Source: Gammaproteobacteria bacterium (lineage in GTDB: Bacteria; Pseudomonadota; Gammaproteobacteria; Arenicellales; Arenicellaceae). From it: DNA of 57,206 bases. Both the position numbers and the translations under genes were made by a program. This document shows positions 3,405 to 32,642 of the stretch, in pieces. How positions within the stretch are numbered: position 1 is the first letter of the stretch; every line of letters starts with the position of its first letter. The stretch spans positions 1 through 57,206 of the forward strand of contig JAKVBA010000010.1 of NCBI GenBank assembly GCA_022447525.1, given 5' to 3'. The notes beneath the pieces were generated by a model that searched no databases, had not been told where the DNA came from, and saw only the letters and a list, made by a program, of their open reading frames with translations.

Positions 3405-4208
3405 CTAGGTCCATATTCCTAGTAAAAGTAAGCCCAAAGCAAAAACAGGTAGGCCAGCCATCAAACTATCTACACGATCTAAGATGCCTCCATGCCCTGG
3501 TAAAATTTGACTGCTGTCTTTTAAGCCAACGTGTCTCTTGAGTTTACTTTCAAACAAGTCTCCCCCAACTGAGGATACAGCAGTAAGAATAGCAGTAATA
3601 AGTAATCCTGCCGCCCCACCAGCTGGGAATAAAAAAAAGAGCAAAGGTATGTATATAGTTACTACTAACAGTAGGCCTCCGACAAAGCCTTCCACCGTTT
3701 TACCTGGGCTCACAGATGGCGCCAGTTTGCGTTTACCAAATCGTTTTCCACAAAAATAGGCGCCCACGTCGGCGGCGACTACTATCAAGAAAAAACCCAA
3801 CACCCAAAAGGGACCGTTAGTAAGAGTTCTAATCTCAATAATTGCCCAACCAGCGGTTGCAAGGGTACTTATGCCAACCATCAACTTGACCCATCTGATA
3901 TTAATAAAAGCAAACCAACCTCGGGTCGTGAAAGCGAATAATGCCATCCAGATTGCACAAACGCTCCCAATGACGATAACAGGTGGCACACTATTCTGGC
4001 CTAAACCATAGGCCGCCGATATAAAGAGCAAATAAGATAGCGCCTGAGCTATTGGATTATCGATCTGACAAAATCTTAGCCACTCGTAGAAACCTGCCAA
4101 CAGCATGACACTAATCATTATGGTCCAATAAACCGGGTTTTTGGCAAACAAGGCCGCGAGTAAAACAGCCACAAGAATAACTGCGGTTATGATTCTCTGT
4201 TTAAGCAT
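3405..4208 (-). CDS. cdsA: Phosphatidate cytidylyltransferase
   Basis: Makes CDP-diacylglycerol from phosphatidate and CTP, the branch point to all bacterial phospholipids. The 267-residue polytopic inner-membrane protein has about seven hydrophobic segments. The C-terminal family signature runs through residues 221-248, with SKLKRHVGLKDSS followed by LPGHGGILDRVDS, including the paired metal-binding aspartates. The start overlaps the 3' end of uppS by 8 bases, suggesting translational coupling. The family usually has 265-285 residues, so it is full length. Confidence 0.96.
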   Translation of the reverse strand: MLKQRIITAVILVAVLLAALFAKNPVYWTIMISVMLLAGFYEWLRFCQIDNPIAQALSYLLFISAAYGLGQNSVPPVIVIGSVCAIWMALFAFTTRGWFAFINIRWVKLMVGISTLATAGWAIIEIRTLTNGPFWVLGFFLIVVAADVGAYFCGKRFGKRKLAPSVSPGKTVEGFVGGLLLVVTIYIPLLFFLFPAGGAAGLLITAILTAVSSVGGDLFESKLKRHVGLKDSSQILPGHGGILDRVDSLMAGLPVFALGLLLLGIWT

Positions 4209-5040
4209 GTGAATCCTCGGAGTTAAAATTTTTGTTGCTATCGATTTTCGGTATCTTATCTACGGCATTTCCAAATCTTCGGTCGCGATGGGTATACAAA
4301 AGTAGGGCCTCGGTGAATGCGTCCTCATCAAAGTCAGGCCACAATAGATCGGTGAAGTAAAACTCCGAGTAAGCAGCCTGCCAAAGCATGAAATTGCTAA
4401 TACGATACTCCCCACTAGTGCGTATGAAAAGATCAGGGTCCGGCTGACCAGCAGTGCACAGACATTGGCTTATCATGTTCTCATCGATCTGATCGGGCTG
4501 TAAATCACCTTGAGCTACCTTAGTAGCAAGCGCTCTTGCTGATTGAACGATATCCCAGCGGCCACCATAATTTATCGCAACATTAAGAACCAGAGCGGCG
4601 TTATCAGCAGTGGCTTCTGTCGCATGCTTCGCTAATCTTTGAATTTTTGGCTCGAATCTAGTCAAGTCACCAACAAGATTTAGCTTTACACTATTTTCAT
4701 CAAGCTTGGCAGTCTGATTTTCCAATGCTCCCATTAACAACTCCATAAGAGCATTAACCTCATTGGCTGGTCTATTCCAGTTTTCGCTACTAAAAGCGTA
4801 TATAGACAGATAAGGTATCTCATGTTTCAAGCAGCTTTTGATCAACTGCTTCACAGCATCTACACCCCGTCGATGGCCAGCCACCCTGGTCAAACCCTTA
4901 GAGTTTGCCCAACGACCATTGCCGTCCATGATAACGGCAACGTGTCTAGGCTTAGGCGTGATGATATCTGGTACCACTTTACCCCTTCTCGACAGCTTTC
5001 CTCTTAGGAGAATAAAAACTGCTTTCAAACGTGAAAACAT
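4201..5040 (-). CDS. uppS: Undecaprenyl diphosphate synthase (UppS/IspU)
   Basis: Cis-prenyltransferase that condenses eight isopentenyl diphosphates onto farnesyl diphosphate to give C55-PP, the lipid carrier for peptidoglycan and other envelope polysaccharides. The 279-residue protein carries the pyrophosphate-binding motif MDGNGRWA at 38-45 (Asp39), then SIYAFSSENWNRP and the C-terminal RTSGEYRISNFMLWQ and FTDLLWPDF segments. It has about 30 residues ahead of the catalytic core, with a basic N-terminus, slightly longer than the E. coli enzyme. It lies 22 bases downstream of frr and overlaps cdsA. Confidence 0.96.
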   Translation of the reverse strand: MFSRLKAVFILLRGKLSRRGKVVPDIITPKPRHVAVIMDGNGRWANSKGLTRVAGHRRGVDAVKQLIKSCLKHEIPYLSIYAFSSENWNRPANEVNALMELLMGALENQTAKLDENSVKLNLVGDLTRFEPKIQRLAKHATEATADNAALVLNVAINYGGRWDIVQSARALATKVAQGDLQPDQIDENMISQCLCTAGQPDPDLFIRTSGEYRISNFMLWQAAYSEFYFTDLLWPDFDEDAFTEALLLYTHRDRRFGNAVDKIPKIDSNKNFNSEDSHA

Positions 5041-5062
5041 AACAAAGAACTGAGACCGGGAG

Positions 5063-5620
5063 CTAGACGGTTAAAATTTCAGCTTCTTTCTCTTTGACAA
5101 CCTCATCTACCTGGCTCACATATTTATCAGTCAGCTTTTGCACTAGATCTTGAGCTCTTTTATCATCATCCTCAGTGATGTCTTTGTCTTTCAACAACGA
5201 CTTAAAATCATTGTTTGCATCTCTGCGAATATTCCTAATCGCTACTTTACCGCTCTCTCCCTCCGCTGCAGCAACTTTGACCATTTCTCTACGACGTTCC
5301 TCGGTTAGAGGAGGCAGAGGAATTCTTATCAACTCCCCTGCGGTCATAGGATTCAAACCAAGGTTGGCTTCCATAATTGCTTTTTCAACGACTGGCACCA
5401 TTGGCTTTTCCCATGGTTGAACACCAAGTGTTCGTGCGTCTTGAACGGTAATATTAGCCACCTGATTAATGGGCGTGGGACTGCCGTAATAGTCGACCAT
5501 TACGTGCTCGATCAAGGCTGGAGAAGCTCTTCCTGTACGAATTTTTGCCATTTCTCCTCGCATTGATTCAATACTTTTTTGCATACGTTGTTCGGCGTCT
5601 TTTAGAATGTCGTCAATCAT
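5063..5620 (-). CDS. frr: Ribosome recycling factor
   Basis: RRF works with EF-G to split post-termination ribosomes. The 185-residue length equals that of E. coli Frr. The N-terminus [17 protein letters not shown] and the segment [19 protein letters not shown] are diagnostic, as is [15 protein letters not shown] in the long-helix domain. It sits between pyrH (214-base gap) and uppS. The larger upstream gap leaves room for an internal promoter, though I could not identify one with confidence. Confidence 0.97.
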
Positions 5621-5834
5621 GATTTTTCGAGCTTGGTTTGTACCAAAAATATCATCGTTAATTGGAGTTACGATTCCATTTTTGTTTGTTTAAAGTGTTA
5701 AAGTCGAGGTGCTAGAAACTTTGAGCATTGCGGGATGGTAACAGCAAGACACAGCCAACACCATCATCTCTAATCTAGTCTTACTTGTCGGTCAGCAGTA
5801 TCTTGGTACCCGGCAATAAAATTAGAAACTTCGA

Positions 5835-6602
5835 TTATGAGCTGGTTATAACTGTCCCAATTTCTATACCTTGACTCATTTTAGTAAGCGCACCCTGATC
5901 GCTTATAGACAGCACCCTCATGGCCATCTCATTATCACGACAAAGAGCGATCGCAGTAGCATCCATCACTCCGAGTCTTTTTTGTAATACTTCATCATAA
6001 GTAATTTTATCGTAGCGTTTGGCGTCAGGATTTTTGGCGGGATCAGAATCATATACGCCATCAACCTTTGTGGCTTTTACCAAAACGTCGGCATTGATCT
6101 CAGCAGCACGCAAACTCGCCGCCGTATCAGTTGTAAAATAGGGATTTCCTGTTCCCGCCGCGAATATAACCACTCGTCCGAGATTCAGGTGCTTTAACGC
6201 ACGCAATCGAACATATGGCTCAGATACAGGAGAGATTGGAATAGCCGATTGAACTCGGGCGCCAACACCGATCTGCTTTAGGCCCTGTTGAATAGCCAAG
6301 GCGTTCATAACCGTGGCTAGCATACCAATATAGTCCGCGGTGGCTCTTTCGATCCCTGACTCTGAGGCAGAAATGCCTCTGAAAAAATTGCCACCTCCGA
6401 CGACAATCGCGACCTGTGTTCCTAGCTCAACGACGTCTGCAATTTCTTTGCAAACGCCGTTAAGTGTCTGCGCATCTATACCGAATTTACTGTCACCCTC
6501 ACTTCCAGCGAGCGCTTCACCACTTAGCTTTAGAAGAATTCTTCTATACCCTCTCGTTGACTCTTTAGCACCATGTTCGTTGCTCAATGAATCGTTTGGC
6601 AT
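5835..6602 (-). CDS. pyrH: Uridylate kinase (UMP kinase)
   Basis: Bacterial UMP kinase of the amino-acid-kinase fold, making UDP from UMP and ATP. The core begins with RRILLKLSGEALAG near residue 20 and contains IVVGGGNFFRG, the UMP-binding DYIGMLATVMNALA and GTGNPYFTTDTAA. At 255 residues it is about 14 longer than the E. coli enzyme because of a hydrophilic N-terminal leader. I keep the ATG at 6602, but a later start is possible. It is the third gene of the rpsB-tsf-pyrH-frr run. Confidence 0.96.
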   Translation of the reverse strand: MPNDSLSNEHGAKESTRGYRRILLKLSGEALAGSEGDSKFGIDAQTLNGVCKEIADVVELGTQVAIVVGGGNFFRGISASESGIERATADYIGMLATVMNALAIQQGLKQIGVGARVQSAIPISPVSEPYVRLRALKHLNLGRVVIFAAGTGNPYFTTDTAASLRAAEINADVLVKATKVDGVYDSDPAKNPDAKRYDKITYDEVLQKRLGVMDATAIALCRDNEMAMRVLSISDQGALTKMSQGIEIGTVITSS

Positions 6603-6677
6603 TGAATGAATCTCCTAATTTTTAGTCTTATTTATCGATATTCTGCGCGGTATAATACTTGTATTTGCGAAAGAATG

Positions 6678-7556
6678 TTACGCTTTTCCTGCTTGTGCCA
6701 TTACTTCGCTTACAAAGTCGTCTTCTTTCTTCTCGATCCCTTCGCCTACTTCATAGCGAACGAATTGAGTCACTTCAGCACCCGCTGATTTAAGTAATTT
6801 CTCAACAGTCTGATCTGGATCTTTTACGAATGCTTGCCCTAGCAGGGTTACTTCATTCAAATACTTACGAATACGACCCTCGACCATTTTTTCCATAATC
6901 TCCGCTGGCTTACCGCTTTCTGCAGCTTGCGCAGAAAATATCTCACGCTCCTTGTCAAGCAACTCGGCAGGAACTTGGTCAGCTGAAACACAAACTGGTT
7001 TACTTGCTGCAACGTGCATTGCAATATCTTTGGCCAGCTCTTCACTTCCGCCCTTGACGCGAGTGAGCACAGAAATTTTGTTGCCGTGCTGATAAGCACC
7101 AACAACTTCACCATCACCAGCTTCAACGATTTCAAAACGACGCACAGTGATGTTCTCACCAATCTCTTGAATTAGAGCTTGGCGTGCGGCTTCAACAGTT
7201 TGGCCGCCTTCAACGTCTATATCCGCCAATGCTTCAACGCTGGCAGGTTTTGACGCCATCACCGCGCTAGCAACTTGCTTTGCAAATGCAACAAAACCTT
7301 CGTTTTTAGCAGAGAAGTCAGTCTCTGAATTAATTTCAACAGCAACACCAGTTGAACCGTCGACTAGAGTTACGATTGTGCCTTCTGCAGCCACTCGGCC
7401 AGCTTTTTTGTCAGCCTGAGCTGCGCCACGCTTGCGAAGCTCTTCGATTGCAGCTTCGATATCGCCGTTCGTTTCGGTCAACATCTTCTTGCATTCCATC
7501 ATGCCAGCGCCGGTGCGCTCGCGTAATTCTTTTACTAAAGAGGCAGTAATTGCCAT
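6678..7556 (-). CDS. tsf: Elongation factor Ts
   Basis: Guanine-nucleotide exchange factor for EF-Tu. The start is placed at the ATG at 7556, giving [20 protein letters not shown], because this matches the conserved EF-Ts N-terminus and an AGGTGA ribosome-binding site lies at 7561-7566. An upstream in-frame start at 7634 would add 26 hydrophobic residues that do not belong to the family. The 292-residue product has the UBA-like N-terminal domain with [21 protein letters not shown], then the exchange core including [17 protein letters not shown]. It is 101 bases downstream of rpsB, the usual partner. Confidence 0.97.
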
Positions 7557-7560
7557 GGGA

Positions 7561-7566
7561 TCACCT
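7561..7566 (-). promoter_or_regulatory. Ribosome-binding site that fixes the tsf start
   Basis: AGGTGA on the minus strand ends 4 bases before the ATG at 7556. It favours the conserved EF-Ts N-terminus over the longer reading frame beginning at 7634. Confidence 0.75.
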
Positions 7567-7657
7567 ATCAGATAAAAAAGGTTGTAACTAAATTGGAATC
7601 GAGTGATAAAGCAAAGAAGCCGGAGTAAAAACACCTCCAGCCTCTTGTGTTGCTGGC

Positions 7658-8665
7658 TTAGCCTAGTTTGGCCTTAGCTTGAGAAATCCACTCTTCACGT
7701 TCGATGCGGCCTTTGAAATTCAATTGCGCATCGATTCGCTCAACATCTTCAGCTGAGAGCTCAGCGATTTGTTTGAATGTTGTAACACCAAGAGCTTTAA
7801 GCTTACCTTCGATTACTGGGCCGATACCATTAATCTCGGTCAGCGCATCACCACCCTCAGTCGCTGCAGATACTTCCTCTACAACCGCTTCCTCAGCAAC
7901 TTCTTCTACAGCTGCCTCGGCTTCTTCGACTACTTCAACATATTCGTTTGCATCGCCTTCGCTAACAGCTGGTCTAATCTGAGCAGCACCACGGGCTTCG
8001 ATGATTGTGTCAGCTACAGCGTTGGTGTAGAGCTCGATAGCTCTGATTGCATCGTCGTTTCCTGGGATAACATAATCTACGCCATCAGGCACGCAGTTAG
8101 TGTCAACTACTGCAATTACAGGAATACCTAGTTTGTTTGCTTCAGACACTGCGATGTATTCAGATTTAACGTCAATTACAAACAATGCATCAGGAAGACC
8201 AGGCATGTTTTTGATGCCGCCAAGACTGCGCTCAAGCTTCACTCGCTCACGCTCTTGCATGAGCGCTTCTTTTTTACCCAACCGCGCATTCGTACCTTCA
8301 ACCATAGCGGTATCAAGTTCCTTTAAACGGCGAATAGAATTTTTAACTGTCTTAAAGTTGGTGAGCATGCCACCCAACCAACGGTGATTTACGTAAGGAG
8401 TGCCAGCACGTTCCGCTGCTTCCTTTACTAACTTACTTGCTGAGCGTTTTGTTCCTACCAACATGACAGACCCACCATTCCCAACAACATTGCCGATGTA
8501 ATTCATCGCGTCGTTGAACATCGGAAGTGTCTTTTCTAAATTGATAATATGGATTTTATTTCGATCCCCAAAGATAAATGGGCGCATTTTTGGTGACCAG
8601 TAACGAGTTTGATGGCCGAAGTGAACGCCTGCTTCTAGCATTTGGCGCATAGTAACGTTTGACAT
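7658..8665 (-). CDS. rpsB: 30S ribosomal protein S2 with C-terminal acidic linker and helix-hairpin-helix domain
   Basis: S2 is a late-assembling 30S protein near the mRNA exit and the S1 attachment site. Residues 1-226 are an ordinary S2 core ([55 protein letters not shown]). The protein then continues to 335 residues instead of about 241 in E. coli. Residues 237-270 are a strongly acidic, Val/Glu/Ala-rich linker, and 273-335 form a compact domain with the helix-hairpin-helix core [20 protein letters not shown] and the ending [19 protein letters not shown]. From memory, this tail resembles one found on L21 and NuoE proteins of other proteobacteria. Its role on S2 is unknown; no frameshift separates it from the core. 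Confidence 0.97.
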
Positions 8666-8914
8666 GTGTACTCCAAATTGTACGGGTTATTACAAATCCG
8701 ATGTATCTAGCCCACTAACCTTTTACCACGCTGTCATCTGCAAATCGCAGTCGATTTTAAAACCACGTGTTCTGGTTATTAACTACCAAAATCACGCAAC
8801 TAAACCCACCACTCAACAACCCCTAAAAAAGATTGCTTATTTGATTTAAAAACAACAACTTAAATAGATAAAAAGCACCCAGCAAACAATAATGACCAAC
8901 GGATGATTTAAGTT
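8666..8914 (-). promoter_or_regulatory. Long rpsB 5' leader, possible S2-responsive leader
   Basis: If the promoter at 8923-8951 is used, the rpsB mRNA carries a leader of about 250 bases. It contains a perfect 6-bp hairpin (AAATCG/CGATTT, 8742-8757, loop of 4). E. coli rpsB is known to be autoregulated by S2 through its leader; that this leader works likewise is inference, and I did not recognise the conserved fold. Confidence 0.3.
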
Positions 8915-8922
8915 GAGGCGCG

Positions 8923-8951
8923 TTTATACCATAGCCCTTTAGCATCAACAA
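8923..8951 (-). promoter_or_regulatory. Sigma-70 promoter of rpsB-tsf with extended -10
   Basis: On the minus strand, TTGTTG (8946-8951) is separated by exactly 17 bases from TATAAA (8923-8928). The TG one base before the -10 makes it an extended -10 element. The bases just after the -10 are CGCGCC, a GC-rich discriminator of the kind linked to stringent control at ribosomal promoters. It is the best promoter match I found in the gap between rpsB and the wax synthase gene. Confidence 0.6.
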
Positions 8952-9062
8952 GAATAATTCTTTAAATATAGGTTAATTTACTCGTTTTCCTGCTCATTTG
9001 ATATCGATGTGAACCACTTGAATTTTCAATGTATCATGTCCTCAAAATTATAAATGAATAGC

Positions 9063-9067
9063 GAGGA
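9063..9067 (+). promoter_or_regulatory. Ribosome-binding site that fixes the wax synthase start
   Basis: GAGGA lies 7 bases before the GTG at 9075. It supports initiation there rather than at the ATG at 9054, which has no such site and would add seven residues absent from the family N-terminus. Confidence 0.6.
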
Positions 9068-9074
9068 ACGCACA

Positions 9075-27366: not shown

Positions 27367-27654
27367 TTAAATTTTTGAGTCTAGTTGCTTGATCACTGCA
27401 TCGATAGCCTCGAGCGAACTCAGCGAATCTCTGGTATCTAACTTTTCCATGGCACTTCTGCAATTGGCCGCCAACTCACTATACCCATACATACCAGAGG
27501 AACCGGCTAGCTTGTGAAGCTCTTCCCTAGCAAATGTAATGTTGTTCTCTTGTAAAAGCTCAGAGCGGGCCTTCCGAATAATTGCGAGCTTTTCTGGAAA
27601 GCTCTGTCTGTATCGTACCTTTAACTGTTGTATCTGTGGCGAATCTTCAGTCAT
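27367..27654 (-). CDS. Histidine phosphotransfer (Hpt) domain protein
   Basis: A 95-residue single-domain Hpt protein. The phospho-acceptor histidine sits in REELHKLAGSSGMYGY, the classic HxLxGssgmyG helix, inside a four-helix-bundle-like sequence. I choose the ATG at 27654 because AAGGAG (27661-27666) lies 6 bases upstream; the earlier ATG at 27672 has no such site. It begins just after the kinase stop codon on the same strand, so it likely receives phosphate from the receiver of that kinase. A natural next partner is a receiver such as that of the OmpR-type regulator at 31956, but this is inference. Confidence 0.85.
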   Translation of the reverse strand: MTEDSPQIQQLKVRYRQSFPEKLAIIRKARSELLQENNITFAREELHKLAGSSGMYGYSELAANCRSAMEKLDTRDSLSSLEAIDAVIKQLDSKI

Positions 27655-27660
27655 CTCAAA

Positions 27661-27666
27661 CTCCTT
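27661..27666 (-). promoter_or_regulatory. Ribosome-binding site that fixes the Hpt start
   Basis: AAGGAG on the minus strand ends 6 bases before the ATG at 27654. It supports that start over the in-frame ATG at 27672, of which this site would be codons 3-4. Confidence 0.65.
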
Positions 27667-27675
27667 ACTCATTAT

Positions 27676-29229
27676 TTATTGCGAAAGCAATATGTCAGCC
27701 GTTTCAATGATCTCTTGGACATCAACTGGCTTTGTTAAGTAAGCAGAGCAACCTAGCTCAGCCGCCCGCTTTTGGTCGGCTTCAACCGCAGATGCACTCA
27801 TTACAATTACCGGAATAGTCGAGCCAATTCTATTCAACTCTAAAACAGCTTCGTAACCCGACATTACTGGCATGTGAATATCCATTATTATGAGATCGAA
27901 GTTATGGCTTTGGACGGCTTCTACAGCGAGCGCTCCGTTGACAACATGAGTGACATCAATATTCCAATCTTTAAGCATCAAAATCATAAGATCTGCGATA
28001 AATGGGTCATCTTCTGCTAACAAAATATCGAGGGATTTAGTTTTAATCAACTCCCTAGTGGCCGAGTCTAAATCCAATGATCCAAGATCAGAGGCGTGCA
28101 CATTAAATTTAACTAGCGTTCCCTCACCTAGCTCGGAAAAAATATCCAACGCTCCTCCCATCATGTTAATGATGCGTTCGGTAATAGTGAGACCAAGCCC
28201 AGTCCCTATTTTGCCAGTACCCGAAGCCTGATAAAACGGTAGCCTTATTTTATTCATATCCTCTTCACTTATACCAATGCCGGTATCTAAAATCGAAACC
28301 TGCAAAGTGTCATTCGCGTAGTTAAAATCCACAGTAACAGACCCCTGATCTGTAAACTTTATCGCGTTGCCTATTAGGTTAATCAGGCACTGACGTAAAC
28401 GACTATCGTCTACCATTACTGTCGCCGTTTCGTTGTAAGGAGGAATGACGTTGAATTCAATTCCCTTTGTTTCACTCAAGGGTCGTAGAACTAATTCCAC
28501 ATCATCTATAAGCTGTTTGAGAGAGTTGGGCTTGGGTTTAAGTACTATCTCATCAGAGTCTAACTTGCCGTGATCAAGCAAATTTTCTACCAGCGACATA
28601 AGATGCTTGCTCGAACGCTGAACAGCACTTAGATAATCATTGTTACAATCGGCGAGTCCTTTTTGTTCATCTCCTGTCTTTTGAAGATTGTTTAGCACTA
28701 AGTTGGTGTAACCTATTATTGAGGTTAGAGGTGTTCTAAATTCATGTGACACGCCTGATAAAAAGCTGGTTTGCAACCGAGAGGCTTCTTCAAGCTGCCT
28801 GTTTTTTTGCTCAAGCTTCCGTGATGCTCTCTCTAATTCAGCCATCAGCTTTTTCTGCCGCTCAACCAATAACTCATTCTCATTGGCGGCTTGCTGTAAC
28901 TTCCTTCTTTGCTCGGTTGTATCCGAAACATCTGATATCAAAACTGTAAGATTGTCTCCACAAGGAACCAAACTAACTGAAATTGACATACCATTTGGGC
29001 TGGCTACGAATGGAAGATCTAGTTTCGTATTAACGTCCATGCCAATCATGAAATCAATCGCGTCATCTATGACCTGCCCCGGTTGCAATTCAGGAAAGCC
29101 ATAATCCTTGATATTACTTGAGGATTCACATACCCGCATATGCTGATCGACAGAGAAGTATGCCAAATGTAATTTATCAGCCAGTTGCCGACTAATAATC
29201 TTTTGAATTGTGCTGTTTGATGTAAGCAA
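27676..29229 (-). CDS. Hybrid sensor histidine kinase with receiver domain
   Basis: A 517-residue cytosolic kinase with no membrane helix. Residues 15-105 form a PAS-like sensor, and 106-155 a coiled coil. HisKA follows with His162 in GVSHEFRTPLTSIIGY. HATPase motifs are the N box around residue 288, DTGIGI at 315-320 and GTGLGL near 342. The C-terminal receiver (399-515) has acidic EDD early, phospho-acceptor Asp450 in IIMDIHMPVMSG and Lys500. It lies between the GTPase and Hpt genes and would complete a His-Asp-His relay. The start is a TTG at 29229 with no ribosome-binding site; the sensed signal is unknown. Confidence 0.92.
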   Translation of the reverse strand: MLTSNSTIQKIISRQLADKLHLAYFSVDQHMRVCESSSNIKDYGFPELQPGQVIDDAIDFMIGMDVNTKLDLPFVASPNGMSISVSLVPCGDNLTVLISDVSDTTEQRRKLQQAANENELLVERQKKLMAELERASRKLEQKNRQLEEASRLQTSFLSGVSHEFRTPLTSIIGYTNLVLNNLQKTGDEQKGLADCNNDYLSAVQRSSKHLMSLVENLLDHGKLDSDEIVLKPKPNSLKQLIDDVELVLRPLSETKGIEFNVIPPYNETATVMVDDSRLRQCLINLIGNAIKFTDQGSVTVDFNYANDTLQVSILDTGIGISEEDMNKIRLPFYQASGTGKIGTGLGLTITERIINMMGGALDIFSELGEGTLVKFNVHASDLGSLDLDSATRELIKTKSLDILLAEDDPFIADLMILMLKDWNIDVTHVVNGALAVEAVQSHNFDLIIMDIHMPVMSGYEAVLELNRIGSTIPVIVMSASAVEADQKRAAELGCSAYLTKPVDVQEIIETADILLSQ

Positions 29230-29287: not shown

Positions 29288-29767
29288 TTATTCTTTAGTT
29301 TTCTCCACTATTTTATGGAATAAAGATTCTACCATTACCCCATCCTTTGCGCTGGTTTCAAACACATCCCAGCCGCGATCTCGAAGGCTCTCAATCGTTG
29401 TATTGTCAACGCACCAGTCTTCAAGATCGGCTTTATTCAGGGCGACTACACAAGGGACCTCACCAATCTTCTCCCGCACGGTAGACCAAATTTCCGAGAT
29501 ACTTTCCACTGTTTGGAGTCTCGTGCCATCAGCAACCAATACAACTCCTGCCGCACCCACTAGGTAACTGGCGTTAATGGGAGAAAGAGAATCCCTGCCA
29601 GCGATATCCCAGATAACTAATTTGGTGTCTTCAATTTGAACCGTGTCGATCTTAACGCCGATTGTGGTCAGATATGTTTCTGAGAATACATTGTTTACAA
29701 ATTTTTGCGTTAGGCTGGTTTTCCCTACCGAAAACTCTCCGACCATACACACTTTTTTCTTTATCAT
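29288..29767 (-). CDS. Ras/Rab-like small GTPase
   Basis: From the ATG at 29767 this is a 159-residue minimal Ras-fold GTPase. The P-loop GEFSVGKTS is at 10-18, the switch I threonine near 34-35 in YLTTIGVK, switch II WDIAGRD at 53-59, the guanine motif NKAD at 111-114 and SAK at 139-141. The residue aligned with Ras Gln61 is Arg59, so intrinsic hydrolysis may be altered. No lipidation motif or membrane helix is seen. The frame is open to 29830, but that would overlap the upstream gene and add 21 residues before beta strand 1. Position beside a membrane protein with a longin/roadblock-like segment hints at an MglA/MglB-like partnership; this is inference. Confidence 0.9.
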   Translation of the reverse strand: MIKKKVCMVGEFSVGKTSLTQKFVNNVFSETYLTTIGVKIDTVQIEDTKLVIWDIAGRDSLSPINASYLVGAAGVVLVADGTRLQTVESISEIWSTVREKIGEVPCVVALNKADLEDWCVDNTTIESLRDRGWDVFETSAKDGVMVESLFHKIVEKTKE

Positions 29768-29799: not shown

Positions 29800-31320
29800 C
29801 TATTTGATATTTGCTTCGATTTTCACCCACGGTATGCCCGAAAAAGATGACACCAAAGAAGCGAACTCCTTAGAAGAAACTTCGAGTTCAATATTAACAA
29901 CACCCATTTTGGAGTGCTCAGTTTTTATCGATGAAGTCATAGAGTTTATCCTGACAGAATCATATCTCGCATTTATAGCTGCTCTTACTGACTGCTCGTC
30001 GGCAGCTAGCCGGCTAATATTTAATCTTTTATCGCTTGCCAAATTCAGAATTCTGGTCTGATTACTCTTTAACCACTCATACGGAGCATCACCTTCTAAA
30101 TAAATCTTACCGTCTTTTTTATAGAGAGATACGCCAGTTGGTAAAGAAAATTCGTTTGTGAACCTAGCTAACTCCATTTCTGGCTCAAGTGAGCGTACAG
30201 GTACAGTGGCAAACCTTATATCTGACTCGGCTATGCCATATGAGTTCAAAGTCTGATAAGGGATAATCGCATCAGGATCCTTTAAACCTTGAACGACGAT
30301 TTTACCATCGTCATGAATGACATGATTTGCCGTGATACCTGGTGTCTGGTCAAGGAAATGCTTGACCGTCGATAATCGCGAGTAACTATCGTACCAATGA
30401 ACCACTAACCAAGTTAGTGCAGCCAAAACTCCAAGTGAAAAAAGTATCGGCCCCACAGGCTTATCTTTTTTCTTATTTTCAGTGGCTGAATCTTCTTGCT
30501 TGAGCTCCGACCGAAGGAGTGGCTGCAAAATTGATCGAGCGCCCATAAACTTTGCAGCATCTCCATCATATTCCGCTATTTCGTTAGCGAAATCTGTACG
30601 AACCATATCGAGCGCATCATATAGTTCCTGTCTTAACGAGACAGGCGCTTCACCTCGGATTACACAAGCTAGCATCGCACTGGCACCATGAACAACCCAA
30701 ACATTTTGATCACCTACCTTTAAGTCCGTAAGACGGCTTCCCTCATCTACAGAAAACGAATCATGTATAAAACTTTGAATTGCTGAAAACATGGCACTAA
30801 CAGCATCACTATCCAGAGACTGAGCATTATCAGCATGAAGTGTGGTCATCGCCATACCAGTGTTTTGATCAATCAAATAGAGGTGTTCGACTCGGTAGAG
30901 TAAAGTCTGGCGCAATGCCAGTTCAGCATAGGGAATGCCTGTTCTTAGTGATTCATAACGTAGACTCAACCCTTGTGCAGTAGTGGCCGACTCAATGGTT
31001 CTGTTTATTGTTACCATCATTGAACTGATGGCTTGTGAAATCGCTCGCCTGATCGAGGGGGCCATAACAGGATACAGAATTTCAGCGTATTCTTGCGGCT
31101 CAGATCTAATCGCCTTTTTTAAACCAAGGGTAACTGGTTTTTGGAGTGAGTCGACAATGCCACTTTGTTGCGAGGAGAGCTCTTTTTCGATGGCAGACGA
31201 TAGAACTTCAGCTACGTCTTTTGTGCGTTGTTCGACATTCTCTATTCGCTGCTTTAACTCGGTGAGCTGTGCTGAATTATCACCGATGATAATTTGCCTT
31301 AGTTCGTCTAACTGACTCAC
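29800..31320 (-). CDS. Membrane protein with cytoplasmic longin/roadblock-like segment and periplasmic BON-like repeats
   Basis: A 506-residue protein with one transmembrane helix at about 288-310. Before it lie a coiled-coil start (1-50), a conserved segment with YPVMAPSIRRAISQAI (about 83-98), and a region near 144-190 reading VEHLYLIDQNTG then SAMFSAIQSFIHDSF that looks like a longin or roadblock fold. After it, in the periplasm, are two BON-like units (ANHVIHDDGKIVVQGL; GVSLYKKDGKIYLEGD). From memory it resembles proteins labelled OmpA-family in gammaproteobacteria and cyanobacteria, but I see no OmpA peptidoglycan-binding motif. It is flanked by the GTPase and a coiled-coil gene. Domain labels are by eye and need a profile search. 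Confidence 0.75.
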   Translation of the reverse strand: MSQLDELRQIIIGDNSAQLTELKQRIENVEQRTKDVAEVLSSAIEKELSSQQSGIVDSLQKPVTLGLKKAIRSEPQEYAEILYPVMAPSIRRAISQAISSMMVTINRTIESATTAQGLSLRYESLRTGIPYAELALRQTLLYRVEHLYLIDQNTGMAMTTLHADNAQSLDSDAVSAMFSAIQSFIHDSFSVDEGSRLTDLKVGDQNVWVVHGASAMLACVIRGEAPVSLRQELYDALDMVRTDFANEIAEYDGDAAKFMGARSILQPLLRSELKQEDSATENKKKDKPVGPILFSLGVLAALTWLVVHWYDSYSRLSTVKHFLDQTPGITANHVIHDDGKIVVQGLKDPDAIIPYQTLNSYGIAESDIRFATVPVRSLEPEMELARFTNEFSLPTGVSLYKKDGKIYLEGDAPYEWLKSNQTRILNLASDKRLNISRLAADEQSVRAAINARYDSVRINSMTSSIKTEHSKMGVVNIELEVSSKEFASLVSSFSGIPWVKIEANIK

Positions 31321-31384: not shown

Positions 31385-31927
31385 TTAACTTCCACGTAGT
31401 TTTACTGCAACTTCATCAAGCATCAAGGCTAAAGCATCACGACTCACTTTATCGCCTTTTAATTCTTCTTTTTGGCTTTCTAGCTGACCAACAAGCTCAG
31501 CCTGTACCGATAAAGTTTGATCAAGTAATTCTTGATGACTCTCCTCTAATGAAGCTCGAACTGACGCCAAATCTTGATTGGCTTGATCTTCCATTAAAGA
31601 AATAGAGTGCTGCAAAGCGGTCTCCGCCTCAGCAAGCGTATTTTGAATAGATTTTAATTCGCTGTTTCTACTTTCTTGCTCCTTCTCAATTTGATTGTCA
31701 AGTTTCAGTAGTGAGTCGTTAACCGCTTGATCCATTTGTTCTAGTTTTTCAGTTAAGCGATCTTTGAGCGTTTCAACGTCGGCTTCAAGTCTACTTTCAA
31801 GCTGAGCAAAGCGGTCCTCGAAACTGGCTACGTATTTGCCAAATAAGATATCTCGTACCTTCTCTATATCGCCCAATCCTGGGTTAATAATTTCAGCACT
31901 ATTTTTACTATTAGTTGTTTCGGCCAT
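31385..31927 (-). CDS. Coiled-coil protein of the GTPase/two-component locus
   Basis: A 180-residue soluble protein that is almost entirely heptad-patterned coiled coil from about residue 30 to 160 (RFAQLESRLEADVETLKDRL is typical). A short conserved head with IEKVRDILFGKYV near 21-33 precedes it. No catalytic motif, signal peptide or membrane helix is visible. It lies 28 bases after the response regulator gene and 64 bases before the membrane protein, on the same strand, so it is very likely part of the same transcript. A scaffold or effector role in the GTPase locus is inference. I know no named function for it. Confidence 0.8.
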   Translation of the reverse strand: MAETTNSKNSAEIINPGLGDIEKVRDILFGKYVASFEDRFAQLESRLEADVETLKDRLTEKLEQMDQAVNDSLLKLDNQIEKEQESRNSELKSIQNTLAEAETALQHSISLMEDQANQDLASVRASLEESHQELLDQTLSVQAELVGQLESQKEELKGDKVSRDALALMLDEVAVKLRGS

Positions 31928-31955: not shown

Positions 31956-32642
31956 CTAAACCTGCTCAAGTCTATATCCGTGTCTATACACAGAATTTAA
32001 CCGCCAGTTTTCCTGGTGCTCGATCATAAGCTTCGAGCGCAACCTGCTTATATGTGTATCAACGGTTCTAGTATTTAGATTAGAGGTCGTACCCCACACC
32101 ATTTCTAAAAGATGTCCTCTAGAGATAACCCTACCAAGATTTTTGAACAAGAACAGGGTCACCTCATACTCTTTTTGAGTCATCTCAACGATTCGCCCAT
32201 TCAATTTTACCTGACGAGACTTTGAATCTAACTGATACGGAGGCAAGTCGAAATTATCAGGAGTATACTCGTCACTAAACCCCATACGACGCGCGATAGC
32301 ATTGACCCTAGCCATAGTCTCTAGTTGCCTAACGGGTTTGGTCATATAGTCATCGGCACCAGCCTCAAGAGCTTGGACAACATCTTCCTCTGAATCCTTT
32401 TGAGTAATAAACACAACCGGCACCACATTATCTAAATGTGAGCGCATGTGTTTAAGCACCTCTAGCCCACTCAGGCTTGGGACCATCCAGTCTAAAAGCA
32501 CAATGTCATAGGAGTCCTTATTATAGCCCCGTATAAAGGCATTTCCATCTCTATGAACAGTGCATTGGTGACCAGCTTCTTCTAGCCAAGCTACCAGTAA
32601 GTCTGCTTGATCCTTATCATCCTCAAGAATTACTACTCTCAT
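31956..32642 (-). CDS. OmpR/PhoB-family response regulator
   Basis: A 228-residue two-domain regulator. The receiver has acidic Glu7-Asp9 (ILEDD), phospho-acceptor Asp51 in LLDWMVPSLSG, and the Lys of DDYMTKPV. The C-terminal winged helix contains EVTLFLFKNLGRVISRGHLL and TVDTHISRLRSKL, then the wing YRHGYRLEQV. It is first in the minus-strand run that continues with the coiled-coil, membrane, GTPase, kinase and Hpt genes, so it could autoregulate that run. The 357-base divergent gap upstream would hold its promoter. Confidence 0.94.
   Translation of the reverse strand: MRVVILEDDKDQADLLVAWLEEAGHQCTVHRDGNAFIRGYNKDSYDIVLLDWMVPSLSGLEVLKHMRSHLDNVVPVVFITQKDSEEDVVQALEAGADDYMTKPVRQLETMARVNAIARRMGFSDEYTPDNFDLPPYQLDSKSRQVKLNGRIVEMTQKEYEVTLFLFKNLGRVISRGHLLEMVWGTTSNLNTRTVDTHISRLRSKLMIEHQENWRLNSVYRHGYRLEQV

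What the first reader, a model, noticed from the sequence alone, without database searches (positions are those of the whole stretch)
29288..29767. Small GTPase with Arg at the Ras Gln61 position
Switch II reads WDIAGRD, so the catalytic glutamine of Ras/Rab (DTAGQE) is replaced by Arg59. In Ras, Q61 changes slow hydrolysis; many bacterial and Arf-like GTPases use other arrangements. The protein may depend on an external GAP or stay GTP-bound until acted upon.
Basis: partly seen in the sequence, partly recalled or inferred. Interest (0 to 1): 0.6.

Follow-up and report, generated by a model that had tools for sequence, protein, structure and literature searches.

The report
Bacterial Rab-like GTPase signalling operon
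A small bacterial switch protein related to Rab and Ras lacks the amino acid such switches normally use to turn themselves off, and sits in an operon whose partner proteins look able to supply that function, which makes the pairing a testable model for how such switches are controlled in bacteria.

Summary
The GTPase is real. It lies on the minus strand, and the residue is Arg58, not Arg59; it aligns with Ras Gln61. By every published feature tested except the OmpA domain it belongs to the described Group 1 Rup GTPases, already reported to lack this Gln (PMC4316618).

My survey extends that. None of 83 relatives has Gln there. Arg is fixed in the window's genus and one family mate (16 sequences, all six Arg codons); elsewhere it is Glu, Ala, Ser, Thr, Asn, Asp, His, Lys or Ile. 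The Ras Gly12 position is never Gly.

The output protein next door, here a hybrid histidine kinase, has a PAS-plus-helix N-terminus in which exactly one column is invariant: a Gln (79 of 79; Gln113). This fits, but does not prove, a catalytic Gln supplied in trans.

New here: the conserved cytosolic domain of the neighbouring membrane protein, published as 'unknown function', is predicted to have a longin/roadblock fold (VIA Z 13.1 to Fuzzy-Inturned), the fold of Rab GEFs and of the MglA GAP MglB. Sequence support is weak, model confidence moderate. It co-occurs almost one-to-one with the GTPase.

Best model: the longin protein regulates the GTPase, which controls a phosphorelay.

The parts
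29288..29767 (-). Group 1 Rup-type small GTPase, P0001, 159 aa
29594..29596 (-). codon AGG of Arg58 (Ras Gln61 position)
29732..29734 (-). codon of Phe12 (Ras Gly12 position)
29800..31320 (-). membrane protein P0002, 506 aa: N-terminal coiled region, conserved cytosolic domain, one hydrophobic helix, C-terminal (probably periplasmic) part without a Pfam OmpA match
30502..30903 (-). predicted longin/roadblock-fold domain, P0002 residues about 140-273
30958..30960 (-). Arg121 of P0002, invariant in 58 of 58 aligned relatives
30394..30459 (-). hydrophobic (probably transmembrane) stretch, P0002 residues 288-309, judged by eye
27676..29229 (-). hybrid histidine kinase P0005, 517 aa: PAS-like N-domain and long helix, HisKA, HATPase_c, receiver
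28891..28893 (-). Gln113 of P0005, the only invariant column of the output N-domain (79 of 79)
27367..27672 (-). Hpt phosphotransfer protein P0006, 101 aa
31385..31927 (-). coiled-coil-like soluble protein P0003, 180 aa, conserved in the operon
31956..32642 (-). OmpR/PhoB-type response regulator P0004, 228 aa, first gene of the operon

Best explanation
P0001 is the switch of a six-gene signalling operon (response regulator, coiled-coil protein, membrane protein, GTPase, hybrid histidine kinase, Hpt), a Group 1 Rup system. Shown: the GTPase keeps its nucleotide-binding motifs; no relative read has Gln at the Ras-61 position; the output protein's PAS-plus-helix region carries one invariant Gln; the membrane protein's conserved domain is tied to the GTPase by synteny and co-occurrence. 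Predicted: that domain has a longin/roadblock fold. Inferred: the longin domain binds the GTPase and controls loading (GEF) or hydrolysis (GAP) in response to the envelope. The GTP form docks on the PAS-helix of the kinase and changes the kinase-receiver-Hpt-response regulator relay. Gln113 of the kinase completes the active site in trans, so that effector binding also ends the signal. Arg58 is then a lineage-specific switch II contact residue, not the catalyst.
For: Position 61: E48, R16, A6, S4, T3, N2, D1, H1, K1, I1, no Gln, of 83; four more diverged relatives have Asn. Output N-domain: one invariant column of 136 well-filled columns, Gln, 79 of 79, next best 90%, across kinase, class III cyclase and HD-GYP outputs. 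Six-gene order kept across the genus; membrane-protein gene upstream on the same strand in 60 of 67 loci. Co-occurrence: order sample 19 GTPase and 20 membrane-domain genomes of 109, 19 shared; class sample 27 and 30 of 369, 26 shared, with 3 of the 4 membrane-only genomes holding a diverged GTPase next to it. G015 (99% complete) lacks all three parts. Fold: Foldseek E 1.7e-4 to Mon1-Ccz1 and 3.4e-4 to an Asgard roadblock; VIA Z 13.1 to Fuzzy-Inturned; Fuz_longin_1 is the Pfam family matched by most members, 5 of 50, best E 0.004. The PAS model, run the same way, returned PAS domains and not longins.
Against: No biochemistry and no model of the complex. The invariant Gln could be structural, in the helix that follows the PAS domain. 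The longin model has mean pLDDT 65 and pTM 0.56, with its central helix under 55. Profile-profile comparison with nine bacterial roadblock relatives found nothing (0.2% probability), profile searches of PDB sequences found no longin, and all Pfam longin hits are weak. Four rows were dropped before the Gln count (L025, L015, L090, L079). In G390 the membrane-protein gene lies on another contig than the GTPase; L028 has none within 5 kb upstream.
Confidence: 0.5

Rival explanations
1. The membrane protein is the GAP: its longin/roadblock domain, with invariant Arg121 as arginine finger, completes the active site; the kinase Gln is structural.
For: Roadblock protein MglB is the GAP of MglA (PMC4316618 passages), and MglB structures score Z about 10.5 against the model. 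Arg121 is invariant in 58 of 58, and in 50 of 50 in alignment A4.
Against: MglB works by positioning residues of MglA itself, and this GTPase has no Gln to position. The best fold matches are longins, several of them from GEF complexes. Arg121 lies in a middling-confidence helix before the fold.
Confidence: 0.2
2. Slow-off timer or pseudo-GTPase: with Phe12 and Arg58 the protein hydrolyses GTP hardly at all and is switched by exchange, degradation or binding only; nobody supplies a catalytic residue.
For: Both Ras positions whose change blocks hydrolysis are changed (that these changes block Ras is recalled). Position 61 is variable, as if not catalytic.
Against: The main nucleotide-binding residues are kept in 83 of 83, and a single Gln is kept in the partner against a background of strong divergence.
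Confidence: 0.15
3. Arg58 is a cis catalytic residue of a new kind (intrinsic arginine finger), specific to this genus.
For: Arg is kept by selection in 16 sequences with six codons.
Against: Sister systems with kinase outputs have A, S, T, N, H, K or E there, so the chemistry cannot depend on Arg unless it changed many times.
Confidence: 0.08
4. The residue at position 61 is tuned to the output enzyme: acidic for cyclase and HD-GYP outputs, free for histidine kinases.
For: Acidic in 39 of 39 cyclase or HD-GYP systems, 2 of 32 kinase systems (classes by short motifs).
Against: On the tree the kinase systems are nearly one clade; only 1 independent comparison on supported branches, so descent alone explains it.
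Confidence: 0.1

Closest known systems
Group 1 Rup GTPase systems (Wuichet and Sogaard-Andersen 2014, PMC4316618; sections 16 and 18 read, passages elsewhere)
   Same: Ras-like motifs, no Gln in G3, neighbours are a coiled-coil protein, a membrane protein with a conserved domain, and an output protein whose N-terminal region has an invariant Gln.
   Different: Arg in G3; the relay is complete (added response regulator and Hpt genes); no OmpA domain found in the window's membrane protein; the 'unknown' domain is here predicted as longin/roadblock.
MglA/MglB
   Same: Bacterial Ras-like GTPase with a roadblock-type partner that regulates it.
   Different: MglA has Gln (TVPGQ or GTPGQ) in G3 and usually an MglB gene; here WDIAGRD, and no Robl_LC7 match over cut-off in the genome.
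Actinobacterial conservon (CvnA-D)
   Same: Kinase, small GTPase and roadblock-type regulator in one operon (PMC4316618).
   Different: The conservon GTPase is of the MglA family, and the conservon has no response regulator.
Longin-based Rab GEFs (Mon1-Ccz1 for Ypt7, Fuzzy-Inturned for Rab23, TRAPP)
   Same: Rab-like GTPase (best PDB match of P0001 is Rab23) paired with a longin-fold protein.
   Different: Here the longin domain is in a bacterial membrane-anchored protein; homology is not shown by sequence; exchange activity unknown.
TBC RabGAPs and Rap/RapGAP (recalled)
   Same: Catalytic Gln or Asn supplied in trans.
   Different: The candidate donor here is a PAS-plus-helix region of the effector enzyme, not a GAP domain.

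Membership tests
Group 1 Rup | single-domain Ras-like GTPase with G1-G5 | tested here: met
Group 1 Rup | no catalytic Gln in G3 | tested here: met
   Arg58; 0 Gln of 83 relatives
Group 1 Rup | neighbouring coiled-coil protein and membrane protein with a conserved cytosolic domain | tested here: met
Group 1 Rup | membrane protein often ends in an OmpA domain | tested here: not met
   window 0 families; OmpA in 8 of 10 relatives scanned, two of the eight below cut-off, none in L038 and L052. The paper says 'often', so this does not exclude membership.
Group 1 Rup | output protein with invariant N-terminal Gln | tested here: met
   79 of 79 including P0005 Gln113
Group 1 Rup | clusters with the published Group 1 sequences in a tree | not tested
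   the published sequences were not fetched
MglA family | G3 with Gln (TVPGQ or GTPGQ) | tested here: not met
   WDIAGRD
MglA family | MglB (Robl_LC7) partner | tested here: not met
   no match over cut-off in the own genome, best E 0.002
Roc/Roco | Roc domain within a large multidomain protein | tested here: not met
   159-residue single-domain protein; Pfam Ras scores above Roc
Longin/roadblock fold (P0002 domain) | strand order b-b-a-b-b-b-a-a and structural match to solved longins | tested here: met
   DSSP of the model; Z up to 13.1, 124 aligned, rmsd 2.8; model confidence moderate
Longin/roadblock families by sequence | significant profile match | tested here: inconclusive
   Fuz_longin_1 in 5 of 50 members, best E 0.004; hhalign to roadblocks nothing
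Longin Rab GEF or roadblock GAP | exchange or GAP activity | not testable with these tools
   needs biochemistry

The most novel reading that the evidence does not exclude
A bacterial Rab-like GTPase with a split, two-protein 'dual finger': a membrane-anchored longin domain (invariant Arg121) and the PAS-helix of the effector kinase (invariant Gln113) together supply the Arg and Gln that RabGAPs (recalled) supply from one protein. That would make it a bacterial counterpart of the eukaryotic Rab-longin pairing, encoded in one operon.
Probability: 0.12. Interest if true: 0.85.

Novelty: new variant of a known kind. Interest (0 to 1): 0.52.

Why it matters
The 2014 survey said that no Rup protein had been characterised experimentally and that Rup proteins are candidate ancestors of eukaryotic Ras/Rab; a 2016 paper calls them the group closest to Rab/Rho/Ras/Ran (PMC4915359, passages). 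If their conserved membrane partner is a longin protein, a Rab-like GTPase plus longin regulator would exist as one operon in bacteria, and the question who turns Rup on and off becomes directly testable with two named residues.

Tried and rejected
Sequence proof of the longin domain: Pfam on 10 and on 50 members, PDB profile searches and hhalign against nine roadblock relatives (with as a PAS comparison and as a GTPase comparison) gave no significant match. Only the fold comparison and a weak lead to Fuz_longin_1 support it.

Residue 61 against output class looked almost perfect, but the tree allows one independent comparison only, so I do not claim adaptation.

I considered folding GTPase and kinase N-domain as one read-through chain, because in L009 and others the kinase frame follows the GTPase stop directly.

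Literature: 'Rup GTPase' and related terms found one relevant paper. Searches that paired longin with bacteria or with OmpA listed no report of a longin domain in Rup systems; that is all that 'not in print' rests on.

Rows dropped: from the 83 GTPases, L026 (Roco protein), L018 and its longer copy L055 (fragment at a contig edge) and L037 (cut). Of the 46 match rows, 14 places were not read for the 83, because no locus was laid for them. From the 79 outputs, L025, L015, L090 and L079 (no partner next door; gene broken; ORF start unclear; two domains), and L037 had no downstream ORF. From the 58 membrane proteins, two short pieces of L051. Alignment A4 holds 49 of these relatives plus the window. 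In one search the window's own row failed by a naming slip; its operon was read directly.

Full report
What is there. The interval holds a minus-strand gene for a 159-residue Ras-like GTPase, the only match of its kind in the genome at E <= 0.001. Pfam gives Ras (9.9e-27) above Roc and Arf. The best solved relatives are Rab23 and Rab35, and in the Rab23 alignment the Arg of WDIAGRD lies under the Gln of WDTAGQE. The Arg is residue 58.

Operon. On the same strand lie, in order: an OmpR-type response regulator (31956-32642), a coiled-coil-like protein (31385-31927), a 506-residue membrane protein (29800-31320), the GTPase, a hybrid histidine kinase (27676-29229) and an Hpt protein (27367-27672), with gaps of 3 to 64 bases. 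The same six genes in the same order occur across the genus wherever the contig is long enough. In 60 of 67 loci read, the membrane-protein gene is found upstream on the GTPase's strand.

Position 61. Of 18 genomes of the genus (the window's own included), 15 have a full-length copy, one a fragment and two none. All 15 have Arg, as does one genome of another genus in the family, written with all six Arg codons, so the residue is kept by selection. Among 83 relatives read from wider searches (the window included) position 61 is E48, R16, A6, S4, T3, N2, D1, H1, K1, I1, and never Q. The Ras Gly12 position is never Gly (F61, A16, T2, S2, W1, Y1), while G10, G15, K16, D54, G57, N111, K112, D114, S139 and A140 are invariant. 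Four more diverged relatives have Asn.

Known family. Wuichet and Sogaard-Andersen (PMC4316618; sections 16 and 18 read; passages) described Group 1 Rup GTPases: no G3 Gln, neighbours a coiled-coil protein, a membrane protein with a domain of unknown function and often OmpA, and a signalling enzyme whose N-terminus has an invariant Gln, which they found noteworthy given their idea that the Gln comes in trans. The window fits in all tested points but the OmpA domain.

The partner Gln. I aligned the N-termini of 79 downstream output proteins. Exactly one of 136 well-filled columns is invariant, a Gln (79 of 79); the next best is 90%. In P0005 it is Gln113. The outputs include histidine kinases, class III cyclases and HD-GYP enzymes (motif-based). 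AlphaFold2 gives a PAS domain followed by a long helix (pLDDT 83.5), matched to PAS structures; the Gln lies about eleven residues into the helix. This is what a trans-acting Gln could look like, but a structural role is not excluded.

Residue 61 and output type. Acidic in 39 of 39 cyclase or HD-GYP systems, but in only 2 of 32 kinase systems. The tree puts the kinase systems nearly in one clade and offers one independent comparison, so this is no proof of adaptation. It does show that within kinase systems the position takes at least eight residues, which speaks against Arg as catalyst.

The membrane protein. In 58 aligned relatives the cytosolic domain has invariant Pro84, Arg121, Met177, Ala180 and Gly223. 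The AlphaFold2 model of P0002 residues 66-280, from the window plus nine loci, has mean pLDDT 65 (64 to 88 over the strands and C-terminal helices, 44 to 52 over the central helix) and the order b-b-a-b-b-b-a-a. Foldseek's best hits are Mon1-Ccz1 (1.7e-4), an Asgard roadblock (3.4e-4), TRAPP and adaptor subunits, with MglB at 1.3e-3. VIA-align gives Z 13.1 (124 aligned, rmsd 2.8) to the Rab23-Fuzzy-Inturned complex, chain A; all 50 listed rows are longin or roadblock proteins as I read their titles, and MglB stands at 10.5. By sequence the family matched by most members is Fuz_longin_1 (5 of 50, best E 0.004). Against: no profile-profile similarity to nine bacterial roadblock relatives and no longin in PDB profile searches. 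I hold the fold at about 0.75. Longin and roadblock proteins mostly act on small GTPases as GEFs, occasionally as GAPs (PMC10933270, passages), so either is open.

Co-occurrence. In the order, 19 of 109 genomes have the GTPase and 20 of 109 the membrane domain, 19 shared; the twentieth, G016, has a GTPase fragment at a contig end. In the class, 27 of 369 and 30 of 369, 26 shared. Of the four membrane-only genomes three have a diverged GTPase beside it and one (G284) none. The GTPase-only genome G471 has a membrane-protein fragment cut by the contig end. G015, G006, G019 and G020 lack the GTPase, the membrane domain and the kinase-type N-domain. In G390 membrane protein and GTPase lie on different contigs and still co-occur.

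Mechanism. Envelope state is read by the membrane protein, whose longin domain controls the GTPase. GTP-bound GTPase docks on the kinase PAS-helix and changes the relay kinase-receiver-Hpt-response regulator. The kinase's Gln113 completes GTP hydrolysis. The parts, their linkage and the invariance are shown; the fold is predicted; binding, direction and catalysis are inferred.

Noticed in passing
L051 (genome G004, same genus) 4013-9070: The operon is decaying: response regulator, membrane protein and kinase genes each carry one in-frame TAA stop, the one in the kinase exactly at the invariant Gln site, and the membrane-protein frame also ends early; the GTPase is still open and keeps Arg.
   Followed up: partly
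L054 (genome G014) 963-1478: A second, diverged Rup GTPase in the same genome with Ala at position 61 and none of the operon partners found around it.
   Followed up: no
membrane proteins of L168, L169, L165, L162, L164, L171: The part beyond the hydrophobic helix contains several repeats of a short unit with invariant Gly and conserved Trp, varying in number between relatives; one protein (L142) has a weak BON match there.
   Followed up: no
window 29800-31320; L038; L052: The OmpA domain that most other family members scanned carry is not detected in the window's membrane protein, a genus mate or L052.
   Followed up: partly
L076, L077, L079, L029: Some output proteins appear to carry two copies of the Gln-bearing N-terminal domain in tandem.
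   Followed up: no
genomes G159, G297, G401: A diverged branch pairs the membrane domain with a GTPase reading WDTDGN in switch II.
   Followed up: partly
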